Of a DNA stretch of 39,275 bases, positions 7,221 to 39,275 are shown piece after piece. Position 1 is the stretch's first letter, and each line of letters starts with the position of its first letter. A program made the translations under genes and the position numbers. Source of the DNA: a virus; the IMG/VR virus record IMGVR_UViG_3300049427_000018, positions 1 to 39,275 of that record; one strand, given 5' to 3'. A model generated the notes under the pieces. That model did no database searches. It was not told where the DNA came from and saw only the letters and a list, made by a program, of their open reading frames with translations.

Positions 7221-7265
7221 TGAACATTGAGGAATTTAACAACAAAACAAAGGGAGAGATTAGAA

Positions 7266-7952
7266 ATGAGTATCGATCTACAGGCGATGGTAAATGCGGC
7301 AATGGTGAAAATGCACGAAGAAGGTGTAATCCAGAAAATTGTAGAGGAAAAGATTGCAAAGACCGTTTCAAACATCGTTGATGATGTACTCGGATCGTAT
7401 TCGGATTTTGGTAAACAAGTGAAAGAAGTCGTGAAGCAAAGCCTGGCTATTGATGTTGATAAGATGGAGCTTCCTACGTATAACGTTCTTGTGAGAAACG
7501 TAGTTCGGGAACGTTTGGATCAGTTGGTTCACGTTCAAGGCATAGAGCTCCTTAAGGCTCGTATGGATGAAATTTTCAAAACAGTTGAATCAGAGATGAA
7601 GCTTTCTGAAATCGTAGAAAATTGGAAAGAGGCACTTAACGAGGATCACGAACGCGATGGTGAACATATCACAGTTACCTGGGAACCTTCAACTTATAGC
7701 AGCGGTGGCGGTTGGCTTTATATTGACGAAGAAGAAGACAAAAGCAACTACCAATGCGATCTACGCGCTGGGATTAACAAGGACGGAACGATTTTTGCGC
7801 TTCACTGGAAGTCACATGATTTACTGAAAGAAGTAAAGACAACGTGGGCTATTGACAGCATTGGAGAACAATTCTTTCGTATGCATGCAGCTGGTTCAAA
7901 AATAATTGTTGATATGGACGAAGTGGAGAAATACTTTGGATATGATGACTAA
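7266..7952 (+). CDS. Hypothetical phage protein, helical N-terminus
   Basis: The product is 228 residues, starting at ATG 7266 after GGGAGAG. The first 130 residues are amphipathic helix (VEEKIAKTVSNIVDDVLGSY..., VVKQSL, KARMDEIFKTVESEMK), suggesting coiled-coil oligomerisation. The C-terminal 90 residues are a beta-rich acidic domain (TVTWEPSTYSSGGGWLYIDEEE). No family recognised. It is the last gene before the late regulator and is set off by a hairpin. Confidence 0.65.
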   Translation: MSIDLQAMVNAAMVKMHEEGVIQKIVEEKIAKTVSNIVDDVLGSYSDFGKQVKEVVKQSLAIDVDKMELPTYNVLVRNVVRERLDQLVHVQGIELLKARMDEIFKTVESEMKLSEIVENWKEALNEDHERDGEHITVTWEPSTYSSGGGWLYIDEEEDKSNYQCDLRAGINKDGTIFALHWKSHDLLKEVKTTWAIDSIGEQFFRMHAAGSKIIVDMDEVEKYFGYDD

Positions 7953-8022: not shown

Positions 8023-8061
8023 ACACTCATCAACCATTATAACATAAAGGGGATGAGGGGA

Positions 8062-9329: not shown

Positions 9330-9359
9330 TTGTTTAACGAACTAATGTTCTGATATAAT
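9330..9359 (+). promoter_or_regulatory. Sigma-A promoter of the three-gene operon
   Basis: TTGTTT (9330-9335), an 18-base spacer and a perfect TATAAT (9354-9359). A LexA-like box lies within the spacer. Confidence 0.65.
9338..9351. promoter_or_regulatory. LexA (DinR) SOS box
   Basis: CGAAC-TAAT-GTTCT matches the Bacillus SOS half-sites CGAAC-N4-GTTCG at 9 of 10 positions and sits between -35 and -10. A weaker copy, AGTAC-AAAT-GTTCC, is at 9378-9391. LexA binding here would repress the operon until DNA damage. Confidence 0.6.
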
Positions 9360-9374
9360 TAGCAAAAATTAAGA

Positions 9375-9398
9375 ATGAGTACAAATGTTCCCTATTGA
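9375..9398 (+). CDS. Possible 7-codon leader peptide
   Basis: ATG 9375 opens MSTNVPY and stops at TGA 9396. The last codons overlap the CCTATT segment (9391-9396) that can pair with the first arm of the downstream terminator hairpin. No good ribosome site is visible, so translation is uncertain. Confidence 0.25.
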   Translation: MSTNVPY

Positions 9399-9409
9399 GA
9401 AAAAAATGG

Positions 9410-9443
9410 AAATAGGCCATTATTAAGAAAAAAGCCTATTTTT
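9410..9443 (+). terminator. Leader terminator / attenuator of the three-gene operon
   Basis: AAATAGGC (9410-9417) pairs with GCCTATTT (9434-9441), followed by U's. It lies between the promoter and the first gene, so it would stop transcription unless disrupted. CCTATT at 9391-9396 can pair with AATAGG (9411-9416) as an alternative antiterminator. Confidence 0.55.
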
Positions 9444-9466: not shown

Positions 9467-10657
9467 ATGCTGAAAATATCGACATTTAAGAATATTTATA
9501 TGAAAGACTTCTTTGATTTCTTTAAAAGTAAAAATGTTCCTGATCGGAATAGCCGTTTAAGAGCCGATACAACAAATGCACGTTATAGTTCAATTCTTAA
9601 AGTTGTTAATGAAGAACTAAAAAGCACGACAGGTGCATTCAATGCAGAGGAATTGGATGAATTTTTGTTCGATAATTTGTTTTATTCAAATAATAATTAT
9701 CATTATGCATATAGATTGGAAAATTTGTTTTTTACAACAGAGACGACAGAACAACAGGTAGAAGCATTCTTTGCAAATAATCCTTCTTTAAATTATAAGA
9801 AATTATTAACCGATGTATCTGTATCAGATTATGAATTATGTACACTTAGATCTGAATTTTCAGATGGTAAATTGACAAGTATAAAAATGTTAATAAAAGT
9901 CGAAACAATAAGTACCCGTAGTATTCCAGCTATTGATATGTTTTCAGCTGTGTTAATTGATTTGGCAAATAAAATGGTTATATTTAAATTCAATCTAAAT
10001 CATTTGGATAATATCCGAAAGGACCCTCTCGATCTTCTTTCTATCCTAAAAAAGATACTTCACGGGGAGGGGACTAGCTGGAAAATATTTAATCCAATAC
10101 AGATAAACATAACGTCACTTAATGAAGAGGCATCTAAAGAGACCATATTCAAATTATTTGAAGAACTTAGCCTTGAAGCCGAAGAATTACTTGATGCACA
10201 AACTTTACCTGATACCGAAAAAAATATCGAGAATTTTCTTAAAGAAATGGGATTAAGAGAAGTAACTGAAGATTATATACAACAGATTAAAGCAGTTATT
10301 TATCAAGAAATAAGCAATACCATAAAAGATTCAATTTTTGAAAAAGGATGGGTCTTTAGATTTGTGTTTCGTGAGGGGCAAACTACAAGAGCTTCAACAA
10401 GAACGGATGATCGTGGTCCTATATATGGATCTAAGGTATACTGGCACCTAAAAGAGTTAATTTTTAAAGAAACTAAAATGATTGAATCTGGCTTTCATTG
10501 GCATATTAAAAATAATACGGGCGAAGATGATTATGTTCAGGTGCGACTTGAATCAAGAAGTGATACAATAATAATGCATTATTATTACAATATGAGATAC
10601 GGCAGAAAGGAGAAGGAGGACTTTGTTGTACGAAAAATTAACGAGTATTTACCATGA
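9467..10657 (+). CDS. Unrecognised 396-residue protein, first gene of a candidate conflict operon
   Basis: ATG 9467 follows GGGGGAG. The protein is A+T-rich in its coding and lysine/asparagine-rich, unlike the neighbouring head and replication genes, a sign of transfer. It has an N-terminal helical part, a beta segment around residues 125-175 (SVSDYELCTLRSEF..., IKMLIKVETI, FSAVLIDLANKMVIFKF), a helical middle with acidic runs, and a C-terminal beta-type domain (GFHWHIKNN, YVQVRLESRSDTIIMHYYYN). No enzyme motif is seen. It overlaps the next gene by 32 bases, so co-translation is likely. A sensor or regulatory role is inference only. Confidence 0.8.
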   Translation: MLKISTFKNIYMKDFFDFFKSKNVPDRNSRLRADTTNARYSSILKVVNEELKSTTGAFNAEELDEFLFDNLFYSNNNYHYAYRLENLFFTTETTEQQVEAFFANNPSLNYKKLLTDVSVSDYELCTLRSEFSDGKLTSIKMLIKVETISTRSIPAIDMFSAVLIDLANKMVIFKFNLNHLDNIRKDPLDLLSILKKILHGEGTSWKIFNPIQINITSLNEEASKETIFKLFEELSLEAEELLDAQTLPDTEKNIENFLKEMGLREVTEDYIQQIKAVIYQEISNTIKDSIFEKGWVFRFVFREGQTTRASTRTDDRGPIYGSKVYWHLKELIFKETKMIESGFHWHIKNNTGEDDYVQVRLESRSDTIIMHYYYNMRYGRKEKEDFVVRKINEYLP

Positions 10658-11288
10658 TTCTGGTTGCGTTAATTACTTCCCCAATTCTTTGCTTGCTGAT
10701 TTTGTTGCTTTCATTCAGAATAATATTGCAAAAAAACAAAGGTTATTAAGTCCTTACAGATTCGCGATTGATTATAACATATCAGTTCGTGACACTGTTA
10801 AATTCTTTATGTTCTTTTCTAATAACGATGGTGCTCTCACGGTAAAATATTTCTTTGAGTGTTCAAACCCATCTTGTATTTCAAACCGTATTTTCTTGGA
10901 GGATGATGTTTTACGTCAAAACCAAGACACATTAAATGAACCGATAATATGTGACGAATGCGGTAGGGATTATTTACTGAAAACAATTATTCCCTTTATT
11001 AAAGTGTATTTTCAGGTTAAGTCGGAATTGATGGTCCCATCAGAACAATTGGATATATCGCGTTTCGATCGAAACTCTACATTCGAGGCACTAGAAGGGT
11101 TGCCTGATAATTTAAAAGTCGAGTCCCCTTCATCCATAATTAACAAGGTTACTACTCATGATGAAGGGGACGAATTTGCAGTTGATTTGCAACTTTTAAT
11201 TGATCTTAATAACGAAATTGACTTGAAAATAATCTCAGACCCAATAGATGAATTCTTAACATCTATATCAGCTTTTGTAAGATATTAA
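10626..11288 (+). CDS. Winged-helix plus zinc-ribbon protein of the candidate conflict operon
   Basis: The product is 220 residues. TTG 10626 has AAGGAGG 6 bases upstream; TTG 10623 is also possible. Residues about 40-75 (LSPYRFAIDYNISVRDTVKF...) look like a winged helix of the type followed by a zinc ribbon in other multidomain regulators. Cysteine pairs ECSNPSC and CDEC about 40 residues apart complete the ribbon. The C-terminal third is acidic and unassigned. It would bind DNA or a partner protein. Sandwiched between an unknown protein and a SLATT-like membrane protein, it may be the adaptor of the system. Confidence 0.75.
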   Translation: MYEKLTSIYHDSGCVNYFPNSLLADFVAFIQNNIAKKQRLLSPYRFAIDYNISVRDTVKFFMFFSNNDGALTVKYFFECSNPSCISNRIFLEDDVLRQNQDTLNEPIICDECGRDYLLKTIIPFIKVYFQVKSELMVPSEQLDISRFDRNSTFEALEGLPDNLKVESPSSIINKVTTHDEGDEFAVDLQLLIDLNNEIDLKIISDPIDEFLTSISAFVRY

Positions 11289-11307: not shown

Positions 11308-11766
11308 ATGAGTGACGAAGAAATAAGTGTAAAAATTAAACAACTCTTACAATTTATTAAAATAGATTTGGCCTCATCTGTAAGCTCTGGGAATAACCTA
11401 AGAAAAAAGGCATTTCGAATGAAAGTATGGGCTATTACACTTTCCGGGCTTATTACAGTGATATTAGGGTGGACATTTCTTGGTGATTATGGAAAATGGG
11501 CAGCTATTTTTTTAAGTGCAAGCTTAACTGCATTAAACAGTTGGGATGCATACAAAAATTATGATAAACGCTTCTTGCAAGAGACGTATTCAACAACAGG
11601 CCTCAAATTTTTGTTTCAAGACATTAGTCTTTATTTAACGGGTAACTCCACGTTTGAATCAGAAAAATTCGATGAGTTTAAAAAAAGATATGACGATCTT
11701 CATAATGAGTACATATCTGAAAGAAAATCACTAGACAGCAATCCTAAAGATACAGAACAAGATTAA
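11308..11766 (+). CDS. SLATT-like two-TM protein (candidate membrane effector)
   Basis: The product is 152 residues, starting at ATG 11308 after GGGAAG. A basic helical N terminus (RKKAFRMKVW) is followed by two membrane helices (AITLSGLITVILGW and WAAIFLSASLTALNSWDAY), then a conserved-looking cytoplasmic helix (YKNYDKRFLQETYSTTGLKF) and a charged coiled coil. The two-TM segment with ALN.W.A and the following R.L...Y helix resembles the SLATT/DUF4231 families, which are predicted pore-forming effectors in nucleotide-signalling conflict systems. The operon ends in a terminator 6 bases later. The family call is from pattern, not a search. Confidence 0.7.
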   Translation: MSDEEISVKIKQLLQFIKIDLASSVSSGNNLRKKAFRMKVWAITLSGLITVILGWTFLGDYGKWAAIFLSASLTALNSWDAYKNYDKRFLQETYSTTGLKFLFQDISLYLTGNSTFESEKFDEFKKRYDDLHNEYISERKSLDSNPKDTEQD

Positions 11767-11771
11767 AGGTA

Positions 11772-11811
11772 AGCGGAAGTTCTATAATTGAGCTTCTGCT
11801 TTTTTATTTTT
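11772..11811 (+). terminator. Intrinsic terminator of the three-gene operon
   Basis: AGCGGAAGTTC / GAGCTTCTGCT (11 bp, two wobbles) with loop TATAATT, followed by TTTTTTATTTTT. Confidence 0.85.
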
Positions 11812-11901: not shown

Positions 11902-12459
11902 ATGAATGTCGTCCAACCGATCCGCGACCAAGTAGTCATAGACGGAGTTAAACGTTATTTATGGCTGCGCAGCATGCGTGACTATCTTTATTTTTGCATG
12001 GGCATATACAGTGGATTGCGAGTATCTGACTTACTTTTACTTCGTGCAGGAATGGTCAGAGGTACACATGTTCAAATGACCGAGAAAAAGAATGCTCACG
12101 ATAAATTATTCATCATCCACCCATCCATTCGAAATGATTTACATCATTTCATCAAGGATATGGCAGATGATGATTTTTTATTTCAAAGTCGCCAAGTCAA
12201 AAAGAAAGTCAGGCTCAGGAATCAACCTATTCATCGTAGCACGGCGTATCGAATGCTCAACAAGGCAGCTAAAGAATTTAGGTTAAAGGACATCGGCTGC
12301 CACACCCTTAGAAAAACGTGGGGATACCAGTTATACATTAAGGACCCGACGAAATTAGCGTTACTAATGAAGATGTATGGACATAGCGATCCGATGATCA
12401 CTTTAGACTATATTGGTATGACACAGGACATGATGGATGATGCCATTTCGAGTTTATAG
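11902..12459 (+). CDS. Minimal tyrosine recombinase (catalytic domain only)
   Basis: The 185-residue protein contains the tyrosine-recombinase catalytic set: R in SGLRVSDLL (near residue 39), K in MTEKKN, HxxR in CHTLRKTW (near residue 134), GHSD (the second His/Trp position), and the nucleophile candidate in LDYIGMTQ. It lacks the usual N-terminal core-binding and arm-binding domains of full integrases (about 300-400 residues). The start ATG 11902 follows GAGGTGGTGG. Such short recombinases are common near terminase genes in Bacillales phages. It might resolve genome multimers or act on nearby sites rather than serve as the prophage integrase. Confidence 0.85.
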   Translation: MNVVQPIRDQVVIDGVKRYLWLRSMRDYLYFCMGIYSGLRVSDLLLLRAGMVRGTHVQMTEKKNAHDKLFIIHPSIRNDLHHFIKDMADDDFLFQSRQVKKKVRLRNQPIHRSTAYRMLNKAAKEFRLKDIGCHTLRKTWGYQLYIKDPTKLALLMKMYGHSDPMITLDYIGMTQDMMDDAISSL

Positions 12460-37148: not shown

Positions 37149-38039
37149 TCAGTCAAAAAGAACGGTTCTCAGAGATTGGATTGTATCAGAAGTGTCATTA
37201 ATTGCATCTATAAGAAGCTGACGTTTTACTTCCCAAAGTTGGTCTTCAGATGATTGATTTCTAAGCATGCGTACAACAACCTGTGCAGCACTAACTTTAC
37301 CGCGAAGGAGTTCGTCTCGAAGTGTTTTCAAGGTATCCAAATCGGGTAAAATCTCGCTATTAGGTTGGGCTGGTCCTAGCTCTTTCACAATAGATGTATA
37401 GTCATGTACAGCATGATCCCCGTATCTCACAATTCGTTTCACTTTATCCTCCGTCAATTCATGGATCTCATTACCCTCGTCACCTAAAATACGAAACAGC
37501 TCCAGTTTACCAAGATATGCTGCTTCATAATCCAGCCTGAAGTCTTTGAGATAATACTTAAATCCATCAGGAGTGAGAAGGTAATTAACTTTTGACCAAT
37601 CAACTCCAGTAAAGGTTACAGTTCCCCAGCGGTTTGATTTTATGCCTAGCGCTTCTTTAATCGCACTCTGCAAGAGCTGGGAAAAATTCAGTCCGGCATC
37701 CTCGCCTGTTTCTTTTAACCATTTTGGCATAGTACAGTTCTTTGTAACTGCTTTATTGGCAGCTTCCTCGCGATATGGAGGGAGAAAGACGTCAACGAAC
37801 ACAATCCGATCAGATGGATCTAAATTATCTATTACGTCGGGTTCAGATGGAGAAGGTGGTTGCCAGCCTCTTTCTTCAAGTTCAAGTATTCGGCTAATTA
37901 GCATTTCTTTAGCCTTACGAACGCCATCAACAACATCATCAGTAACAATTCCAGTGCCAGGGAAATCCGGGAAATATAATCCATAGCCGCCATCCGAAGC
38001 CTTTTCAACCACAACTGGATAGATAAAATTATTTGTCAT
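37149..38039 (-). CDS. hicB-like: HicB-like antitoxin with a long C-terminal extension
   Basis: The product is 296 residues. ATG 38039 has GAGGAG 10 bases upstream; GTG 38048 is 3 bases from that site. The N-terminal ~135 residues form a HicB: YPVVVEKASDGGYGLYFPDF (partial RNase-H-like fold), V.FLPPYREEAANKAV, and a MPKWLKETGEDAGLNFSQLL helix like the DNA-binding end of HicB. The remaining ~160 residues are of unknown family. Ordinary HicB proteins are usually about 80-150 residues. Downstream of hicA in one leftward operon. Confidence 0.78.
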   Translation of the reverse strand: MTNNFIYPVVVEKASDGGYGLYFPDFPGTGIVTDDVVDGVRKAKEMLISRILELEERGWQPPSPSEPDVIDNLDPSDRIVFVDVFLPPYREEAANKAVTKNCTMPKWLKETGEDAGLNFSQLLQSAIKEALGIKSNRWGTVTFTGVDWSKVNYLLTPDGFKYYLKDFRLDYEAAYLGKLELFRILGDEGNEIHELTEDKVKRIVRYGDHAVHDYTSIVKELGPAQPNSEILPDLDTLKTLRDELLRGKVSAAQVVVRMLRNQSSEDQLWEVKRQLLIDAINDTSDTIQSLRTVLFD

Positions 38040-38095
38040 TTTAAACACACTCCTCGATATTATTAGGAGGTAAGAGGTTTGAGAAAAGCCCGGGG

Positions 38096-38311
38096 TTAGA
38101 AGCTAACCCCGGAAGTCTTTTCAATGTTCTTTAATGTGCCTTTCGGAACTACTTGGCCTGAACGATGGAAGCTTATGTCAGCGAATCGGGTGTTATCCGT
38201 TTTGTGTATGTAGCGTTGGTGGCTAGATTTCGGATTATGATTTGCTGATTTTATGAATCCTGCTTGCTTCAAGCCTTGTAATACATCTCTTGTTGTGACT
38301 TGTTTTCCCAA
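38096..38311 (-). CDS. hicA-like: HicA-like mRNA interferase toxin
   Basis: The product is 71 residues, starting at TTG 38311 after AAAGGAGGT. VLQGLKQAGF, KSSHQRYIH (catalytic His in the SxH region) and VVPKGTLKNIEKTSG fit HicA, a double-stranded-RNA-binding-like mRNA interferase. It is transcribed before hicB from a promoter with a palindromic operator. The pair is a type II toxin-antitoxin module near the phage's right end, likely for stability or defence. Confidence 0.85.
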   Translation of the reverse strand: MGKQVTTRDVLQGLKQAGFIKSANHNPKSSHQRYIHKTDNTRFADISFHRSGQVVPKGTLKNIEKTSGVSF

Positions 38312-38414: not shown

Positions 38415-38443
38415 TTTACAAACAAACGTTCGCATAATATAAT
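38415..38443 (+). promoter_or_regulatory. Sigma-A promoter of the SOS operon
   Basis: TTTACA (38415-38420), a 17-base spacer, perfect TATAAT (38438-38443). Confidence 0.75.
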
Positions 38444-38458
38444 GAGAACAAATATTCG
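38419..38458. promoter_or_regulatory. Two LexA boxes in the SOS promoter
   Basis: CAAAC-AAAC-GTTCG (38419-38432) and AGAAC-AAAT-ATTCG (38445-38458) match CGAAC-N4-GTTCG at 9 and 8 of 10 positions. They flank the -10 and explain induction by DNA damage. Confidence 0.65.
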
Positions 38459-38474: not shown

Positions 38475-38669
38475 ATGATTGATAAGTATATAGGTCGGAC
38501 AGTTCAGATTATTTATAACGACCGCAATCGCAACATTTCAATCCGCACCATACATGTCAGGTCGATACGGGATGGACGAGTAAAAGCATACTGTTATACG
38601 GCTAATGCCCCTCGCGTATTTAGCATGTCGAACATCATTGATGTGGAGTTGATTAAACAGAATGCTTGA
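38475..38669 (+). CDS. SOS-operon small protein (YolD-operon-associated)
   Basis: The product is 64 residues, starting after GGAGTGAGGGG. The sequence MIDKYIGRTVQIIYNDRNRN then TIHVRSIRDGRVKAYC and APRVFSMSNIIDVELI is like the small beta-barrel (WYL-like) proteins that I recall in Paenibacillus operons beside YolD and UvrX-type polymerases. The stop overlaps the next start by 8 bases. Role in SOS response inferred from promoter and neighbours. Confidence 0.65.
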   Translation: MIDKYIGRTVQIIYNDRNRNISIRTIHVRSIRDGRVKAYCYTANAPRVFSMSNIIDVELIKQNA

Positions 38670-38904
38670 TGATACTACACGAAAAATATTGACGGTCATT
38701 TTTAATGTATATCGTGACAATCCCTCAATAATAGATGTTGCTTATATTAGTCATAAGTCACAAAGAACTGAGGATCAAGTAAAGGAATCGATAAACATTT
38801 TAGTCAAAGAGGGTTTGATACTTTGGGATCAGCAGAACAATACATTCAAAGTGTTATATAACCGAATCGAGAATAAGCCAGTTGTGTGGCGAGGTTGGAA
38901 CTAG
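38662..38904 (+). CDS. Winged-helix DNA-binding protein of the SOS operon
   Basis: This is an 80-residue winged helix: TTRKILTVIFNVYRDNPSII, then SHKSQRTEDQVKESINILVK and GLILWDQQNNTF. Its start overlaps the preceding gene, and its stop TAG shares a base with the GTG of the YolD gene. Probably a regulator; the target is unknown. Confidence 0.68.
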   Translation: MLDDTTRKILTVIFNVYRDNPSIIDVAYISHKSQRTEDQVKESINILVKEGLILWDQQNNTFKVLYNRIENKPVVWRGWN

Positions 38905-39275
38905 TGAAAAAGGTGAACAGATTAGATCCACAAAGTAATAAAATGTGGTCAAGTAGCCGGATGATGTTGCCGGAGCATGTCGTCGCAATTAATAAATTCA
39001 ACAAAGAACAGGAGGATTTAGACATGGCAAAAGCAAAGGGGCCAAAGCGACCTACGAGAGATGAGTTTGAAATGGAGGAGCTAGGTGAGCGTTTGGTGGA
39101 GGCTCAGCAGGAGGAATTGTTAATAAAACTTATAGTTTGGAATTGGGATGCGCCTGTGAAAGGGAAAATTATAAAAATGGATTCCAGAACAAAATCAGTT
39201 CATGTGGAGTTTAATGGTGAGACAACAAAGGTTCATTTCATGGATATTATGAAGATACAGTCTGCGGATAATTAA
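38904..39275 (+). CDS. yolD-like: YolD-like protein
   Basis: The product is 123 residues. GTG 38904 overlaps the previous stop (TAGTG). The MWSSSRMMLPEHV segment and PKRPTRDEFEMEELGERLVE are recognisable YolD-family elements, followed by a small beta-barrel (VKGKIIKMDSRTKSVHVEFN). In Bacillus subtilis SPbeta yolD is paired with the Y-family polymerase gene uvrX under LexA. A polymerase gene is therefore expected just past the window. Confidence 0.82.
   Translation: MKKVNRLDPQSNKMWSSSRMMLPEHVVAINKFNKEQEDLDMAKAKGPKRPTRDEFEMEELGERLVEAQQEELLIKLIVWNWDAPVKGKIIKMDSRTKSVHVEFNGETTKVHFMDIMKIQSADN

What the first reader, a model, noticed from the sequence alone, without database searches (positions are those of the whole stretch)
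9338..9391. LexA box in the promoter of the three-gene operon
CGAAC-TAAT-GTTCT lies between -35 and -10, and a weaker box follows at 9378. The same layout recurs at 38419-38458 in the YolD operon. A candidate conflict system under DNA-damage control would tie it to prophage induction, or to sensing of incoming phage that damage DNA.
Basis: partly seen in the sequence, partly recalled or inferred. Interest (0 to 1): 0.6.

Follow-up and report, generated by a model that had tools for sequence, protein, structure and literature searches.

The report
SOS-controlled prophage three-gene cassette
A virus that sits dormant in a soil bacterium carries a three-gene cassette, probably a defence or kill module, whose on-switch contains binding sites for the cell's DNA-damage repressor LexA; distant copies of the cassette keep the same kind of switch although the DNA around it has changed completely, so control by DNA damage is probably real.

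Summary
The box is real. A LexA matrix trained on 90 sites upstream of lexA in 30 Bacillales genomes ranks 9338-9351 second in the window (17.3 bits; 0.03 such sites expected by chance) and the two YolD-operon boxes first and third. It fills the spacer of a sigma-A-type promoter. The 'weaker box' at 9378 is at chance level alone (5.4 expected), but homologous operons show that it belongs to a second conserved promoter pattern, found only upstream of this gene in 3.9 Mb scanned. Six of six copies from the window's lineage (probably Paenibacillaceae) carry a LexA-like box upstream of gene A (background 3.9% of genes), against none of eight other Bacillales copies. The strong first-promoter box accompanies only copies whose third gene is a SLATT membrane protein (3 of 3; 0 of 11 others). 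Flanking DNA is randomised, box arms are not. Best reading: host LexA represses a prophage-borne cassette that swaps membrane effectors. LexA control is well supported by sequence; LexA binding, induction and the defence role are inferred. LexA-controlled prophage operons are known; this cassette, absent from PADLOC and Pfam, appears undescribed.

The parts
9330..9335 (+). -35 (TTGTTT) of promoter P1
   Evidence: read from sequence; same place as TTGAAA and TTGAAT in L136 and L140
9338..9351 (+). LexA box 1, CGAACTAATGTTCT, in the P1 spacer
   Evidence: matrix score 17.3, 0.03 expected per window; conserved in L136 and L140
9354..9359 (+). -10 (TATAAT) of promoter P1
   Evidence: read from sequence
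9378..9391 (+). LexA-like box 2, AGTACAAATGTTCC
   Evidence: score 8.3, chance level alone; positional equivalents at -80 to -98 of gene A in L136, L146, L158, L159
9395..9423 (+). putative promoter P2 (TTGAGA, 17 nt, CATTAT)
   Evidence: promoter scan; composite pattern with box 2 found only upstream of A in 3.9 Mb
9467..10657 (+). gene A, 396 aa, no known family
10623..11288 (+). gene B, up to 221 aa, four invariant cysteines (probable zinc ribbon); overlaps the end of A
11308..11766 (+). gene C, 152 aa, SLATT-domain two-TM membrane protein
   Evidence: NCBIfam SLATT_1 E 1.8e-10, 40.9 bits against cut-off 41; 40% identical to L140 C, which passes the cut-off
11771..11801 (+). terminator-like hairpin with T-run
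38419..38432 (+). LexA box of the YolD operon, CAAACAAACGTTCG
   Evidence: score 18.1, best in the window; equivalent in L099
38445..38458 (+). second LexA box of the YolD operon, AGAACAAATATTCG
   Evidence: score 15.6; equivalent in L099
38475..39275 (+). YolD operon: small ORF (38475-38669), 80-aa winged-helix-like ORF (38662-38904), YolD-like protein (38886-39275)

Best explanation
The 9330-9423 region is a double promoter that puts a three-gene prophage cassette (A, B and a SLATT membrane protein C) under host LexA. In an undamaged lysogen LexA sits on box 1, in the -35/-10 spacer of P1, and more weakly on box 2, just downstream of P1 and upstream of P2, and keeps expression low. DNA damage leads to RecA-stimulated LexA self-cleavage and derepression, together with the YolD operon at 38.4 kb. 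The cassette most likely acts as a conflict or abortive-infection module: A and B (B probably zinc-binding) sense or signal and the membrane protein C executes, so LexA keeps a potentially toxic membrane effector silent until the DNA is in trouble. Shown by sequence: the boxes, the promoter geometry, conservation in independent copies, the effector swap. Inferred: LexA binding, induction, the existence of two start sites, and the function of A, B and C (my confidence in the conflict role alone is about 0.45).
For: Top matrix scores of the window. Same box-in-spacer geometry in L136 and L140 with arms 8-9 of 10 identical and flanks 21-39% identical. Second conserved box and promoter pattern in the window, L136, L158, L159, box alone in L146. 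6 of 6 lineage copies against 3.9% background and 0 of 8 other copies. LexA promoters of the same genomes carry sites that fit the matrix. SPbeta yolD box CGAACTTTTGTTCT is bound by LexA with Kd 3.9 nM (PMC8270828). SLATT domain in C; cargo position.
Against: No binding or expression data. Eight homologous operons in other Bacillales have no box, so SOS control is not needed for the cassette as such. Box 2 is weak by the LexA matrix and P2 is only a sequence pattern. The host of the window is unknown. The SLATT association rests on three copies. A and B match no known defence family.
Confidence: 0.75

Rival explanations
1. The boxes are operators of a phage-encoded LexA-like or other regulator rather than of host LexA. 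For example a truncated LexA-type winged-helix protein activates P2 from box 2, as GIL01 gp6 activates P3.
For: Box 2 lies just upstream of the P2 -35, a usual activator position. GIL01 gp6 is a truncated LexA that activates transcription (PMC6182141). A LexA N-domain-like gene lies in the YolD-type operon next to the cassette in L146; the window has an 80-aa winged-helix-like ORF in its YolD operon.
Against: Profile comparison of the 80-aa protein with the LexA N-domain is inconclusive (probability 54%, 21 columns). Box 1 and the YolD boxes fit the host LexA matrix as well as real lexA-promoter sites do.
Confidence: 0.2
2. The cassette is SOS-timed lytic-cycle or lysogen-fitness cargo (for example a host-takeover or lysis helper), not a defence module.
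For: LexA derepression coincides with prophage induction. In L135/L136, L140, L158 and L159 the cassette lies directly after holin/endolysin genes.
Against: It also occurs on a plasmid, beside smpB outside a recognisable prophage, and in the lysogeny modules of other prophages, without a LexA box, which suits defence cargo better than a lytic function.
Confidence: 0.25
3. The match at 9338 is a chance resemblance in AT-rich promoter DNA and the operon is not under LexA.
For: A plain consensus search finds about as many matches in shuffled sequence.
Against: Matrix significance, position in the promoter and conservation in independent copies.
Confidence: 0.05

Closest known systems
LexA (DinR) boxes of Bacillus prophage SPbeta, especially the yolC/yolD promoters
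   Same: 14-bp CGAAC-N4-GTTCG type boxes in prophage promoters, two per promoter at yolD, LexA binding shown in vitro (PMC8270828); the window's YolD operon has the same arrangement and box 1 differs from the yolD box CGAACTTTTGTTCT at two spacer positions
   Different: The SPbeta genes concerned are not an A-B-SLATT cassette; here the box controls apparent cargo and a second promoter-like element follows
Phage GIL01 LexA-controlled promoters (dinBox1/1b, P3)
   Same: Strong plus weak LexA site at one promoter; phage genes governed by host LexA (PMC4551915, PMC6182141)
   Different: GIL01 uses LexA as its lysogeny repressor; here none of the significant boxes lies before the replication genes
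DNA-damage-responsive immune operons (CapW/BrxR, CapH+CapP, CapK+CapS)
   Same: Candidate immune operon expressed on DNA damage (PMC13373217)
   Different: Those use a dedicated regulator encoded next to the operon; no such gene here, the operator fits host LexA
SLATT-containing conflict systems (2TM effectors, SLATT-associated reverse transcriptases)
   Same: C carries a SLATT_1-type domain and matches PADLOC 2TM-effector and RT-SLATT profiles
   Different: No nucleotidyltransferase, SLOG or reverse transcriptase found; the partners A and B belong to no described family

Membership tests
LexA (SOS) regulon, Bacillales-type LexA | 14-bp LexA operator scoring like real lexA-promoter sites | tested here: met
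   17.3 against training median 17.2 and lower quartile 15.7
LexA (SOS) regulon, Bacillales-type LexA | operator overlaps the promoter so that LexA can block RNA polymerase | tested here: met
   box 1 fills the P1 spacer, as in L136 and L140; start site not mapped
LexA (SOS) regulon, Bacillales-type LexA | operator conserved upstream of orthologous genes | tested here: inconclusive
   a LexA-like box in 6 of 6 copies of the window's lineage, 0 of 8 other Bacillales copies
LexA (SOS) regulon, Bacillales-type LexA | binding by LexA and induction by DNA damage | not testable with these tools
   needs EMSA and reporter assays
SLATT conflict systems | SLATT two-TM domain | tested here: met
   SLATT_1 E 1.8e-10, 40.9 bits with cut-off 41; the L140 homolog passes at 47.6
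SLATT conflict systems | associated SMODS nucleotidyltransferase, SLOG or reverse transcriptase | tested here: not met
   A and B match none in Pfam, NCBIfam or PADLOC
DNA-damage-responsive immune operons (CapW, CapH+CapP, CapK+CapS) | dedicated regulator gene adjacent to the operon | tested here: not met
   next genes are phage genes of other kinds: unknown protein at 8053 and a tyrosine recombinase at 11902
DNA-damage-responsive immune operons (CapW, CapH+CapP, CapK+CapS) | operon protects against phage | not testable with these tools
   needs a phage challenge
GIL01-type LexA lysogeny switch | LexA box controls the early lytic promoter | tested here: not met
   the three significant boxes lie only before the A-B-C cassette and the YolD operon, none before the replication genes

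The most novel reading that the evidence does not exclude
A previously undescribed modular prophage immune system (conserved A-B core with exchangeable membrane effectors) that uses the host's LexA instead of a regulator of its own, and in which acquisition of the SLATT effector went together with acquisition of a second, strongly LexA-repressed promoter, so that the tightness of SOS control evolved with the effector.
Probability: 0.35. Interest if true: 0.75.

Novelty: new variant of a known kind. Interest (0 to 1): 0.52.

Why it matters
Control of immune operons by DNA damage is an active question; the described cases use dedicated regulators (CapW, CapH+CapP, CapK+CapS; PMC13373217). A cassette wired straight to host LexA, with conservation across divergent copies and a strong-box/SLATT association, makes it directly testable whether phages couple the host SOS response to defence or killing. 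No paper in the searched library mentions SLATT and LexA together.

Tried and rejected
Plain consensus searches: not significant, replaced by a trained matrix. AlphaFold of A: mean pLDDT 45, unusable. AlphaFold of B: pLDDT 70, but no Foldseek match at E 0.001 or better; a weak resemblance to winged-helix and zinc-finger proteins is a lead only. Rfam: no RNA in the window. Annotated phages: no relative of A, B or C. Viral contigs: a single relative of A. The 80-aa protein of the YolD operon as a truncated LexA: inconclusive. The idea that the box is a trait of the whole cassette family was rejected. The idea that box 2 is only noise was first accepted and then rejected. One script gave empty rows for three loci because alignment rows named like loci overwrote them; repeated correctly.

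Full report
What was checked. The window is an IMG/VR virus record of 39,275 bases. Head and packaging genes start at about 13-14 kb and the endolysin is at 36.3 kb. The three-gene operon is A 9467-10657, B 10623-11288 and C 11308-11766, followed by a terminator-like hairpin at 11771-11801.

Is the box there, and is it more than chance? With a plain consensus it is not significant. I therefore took the upstream regions of lexA from 30 Bacillales genomes, collected 90 sites and built a symmetric matrix.

Do homologous operons keep it? The first homologs, at 45-50% identity (L001, L002, L013, L014, L015), a plasmid copy (L005) and two distant copies at 22-24% (L016, L017), have no LexA-like site belonging to the promoter of A (the two boxes 300-330 bp upstream in L005 lie next to the divergent Y-polymerase gene). 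A search of the whole class then gave copies in a genus of 4-8.5 Mb genomes, later in its family and order. There the picture is different. L136 (and its duplicate L135) has TTGAAA-a-GGAACGTATGTTCG-ta-TATACT and L140 has TTGAAT-a-AGAACCTGTGTTCG-ta-TATTAT, the same geometry as the window's TTGTTT-aa-CGAACTAATGTTCT-ga-TATAAT. Box arms agree at 8-9 of 10 positions while flanks agree at 21-39%, which argues for selection on the box.

The weaker box. L136, L146, L158 and L159 have LexA-like 14-mers 80-98 bp before A, as the window does at -89. In the window, L136, L158 and L159 it is followed after 2-3 nt by TTGNNN, 17 nt and [CG]ATTAT. This composite pattern has no other occurrence in 3.9 Mb (both strands together) of session DNA; the pattern was derived from these copies, so only the absence of background hits is informative. 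I read it as a second promoter P2 with an operator just upstream of its -35. In total 6 of 6 copies of this lineage have a LexA-like box (7.9 or more) within 240 bp of A, against 0 of 8 others; among 1707 genes in comparable DNA 3.9% reach 7.9 and 0.4% reach 15.5.

Box and effector. The third gene is of two kinds with no detectable similarity to each other: a SLATT protein in the window, L136 and L140, and another membrane protein in the rest. The strong P1 box is present in exactly the three SLATT copies. In the A tree these lie on two branches (window with L136; L140), whose neighbours (the Bacillaceae group; L146) lack both. The counts are small and the root is uncertain; in L146 gene A is also disrupted by stop codons.

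Context. The cassette looks like cargo. In four related phages (L035, L047, L054, L056) homologs of the genes that flank it in the window lie about 0.5-1.2 kb apart, against 3.4 kb here. In L135/L136, L140, L158 and L159 it lies after holin/endolysin-type genes (gene types read from the translations). In L014 and L015 it lies near a repressor-like gene and a serine recombinase, with a LexA box just after it; in L002 a YolD gene with a LexA box follows; in L005 it is divergent from Y-polymerase and yolD genes; in L013 it is beside smpB, outside a recognisable prophage. The repeated neighbourhood with LexA-controlled genes is notable but may only reflect a shared cargo position.

How it most likely works. 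Shown: operator-like sequences, promoter geometry, conservation, operon structure, SLATT domain, effector swap. Established elsewhere: LexA binds such boxes at SPbeta yolD with Kd 3.9 nM (PMC8270828), and GIL01 uses LexA at a strong and a weak box (PMC4551915). Inferred: LexA represses the cassette and DNA damage releases it; A and B sense or signal and C acts on the membrane. Whether the output is defence, killing of the host or help for the lytic cycle is open.

Relation to known systems. It works like a LexA-regulated prophage operon, a known kind. It resembles DNA-damage-controlled immune operons, but without their dedicated regulators (PMC13373217). It is not filed under a SLATT system type, because the defining partners are absent. 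A and B have no significant match in Pfam, NCBIfam, PADLOC or, by sequence, in the PDB.

Limits. Records near the window's own genome may be hidden by the tools; the host is not known; transcription starts are predicted; only 14 independent loci were found; family and order searches drew samples, not all genomes.

Noticed in passing
window 38662-38904; L146:9942-10190: An 80-aa winged-helix-like ORF inside the LexA-boxed YolD operon; the equivalent gene of L146 is a clear LexA N-domain (61 bits). It may be a truncated phage LexA like GIL01 gp6; profile comparison for the window protein was inconclusive.
   Followed up: partly
L001, L002, L013-L017, L135/L136, L140, L146, L158, L159: The third gene of the cassette is exchanged between two unrelated membrane-protein types while A and B are conserved.
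   Followed up: yes
L135 and L136 (genome G661): One genome carries two copies of the cassette that are identical over at least 7.2 kb, in two prophage-like regions.
   Followed up: no
window 10600-10660: Genes A and B overlap by 35 nt, and the purine-rich ribosome-binding stretch AGAAAGGAGAAGGAGGA for B lies inside the end of A; it is nearly unchanged in L001 and L002, suggesting translational coupling.
   Followed up: no
window 37149-38048, minus strand: 299-aa protein with a HicB-like antitoxin domain; its partner ORF may be 38096-38311 on the same strand.
   Followed up: no
L005 (Priestia megaterium plasmid NZ_CP064271.1): Plasmid copy of the cassette with gene A annotated only from its middle part (5' part interrupted), divergent from Y-family polymerase and yolD genes that carry two LexA boxes.
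   Followed up: partly
window 7227-7952: Phage protein of unknown function (phrog_2600) with a weak partial match to ZorA (E 8e-4, far below the cut-off).
   Followed up: no
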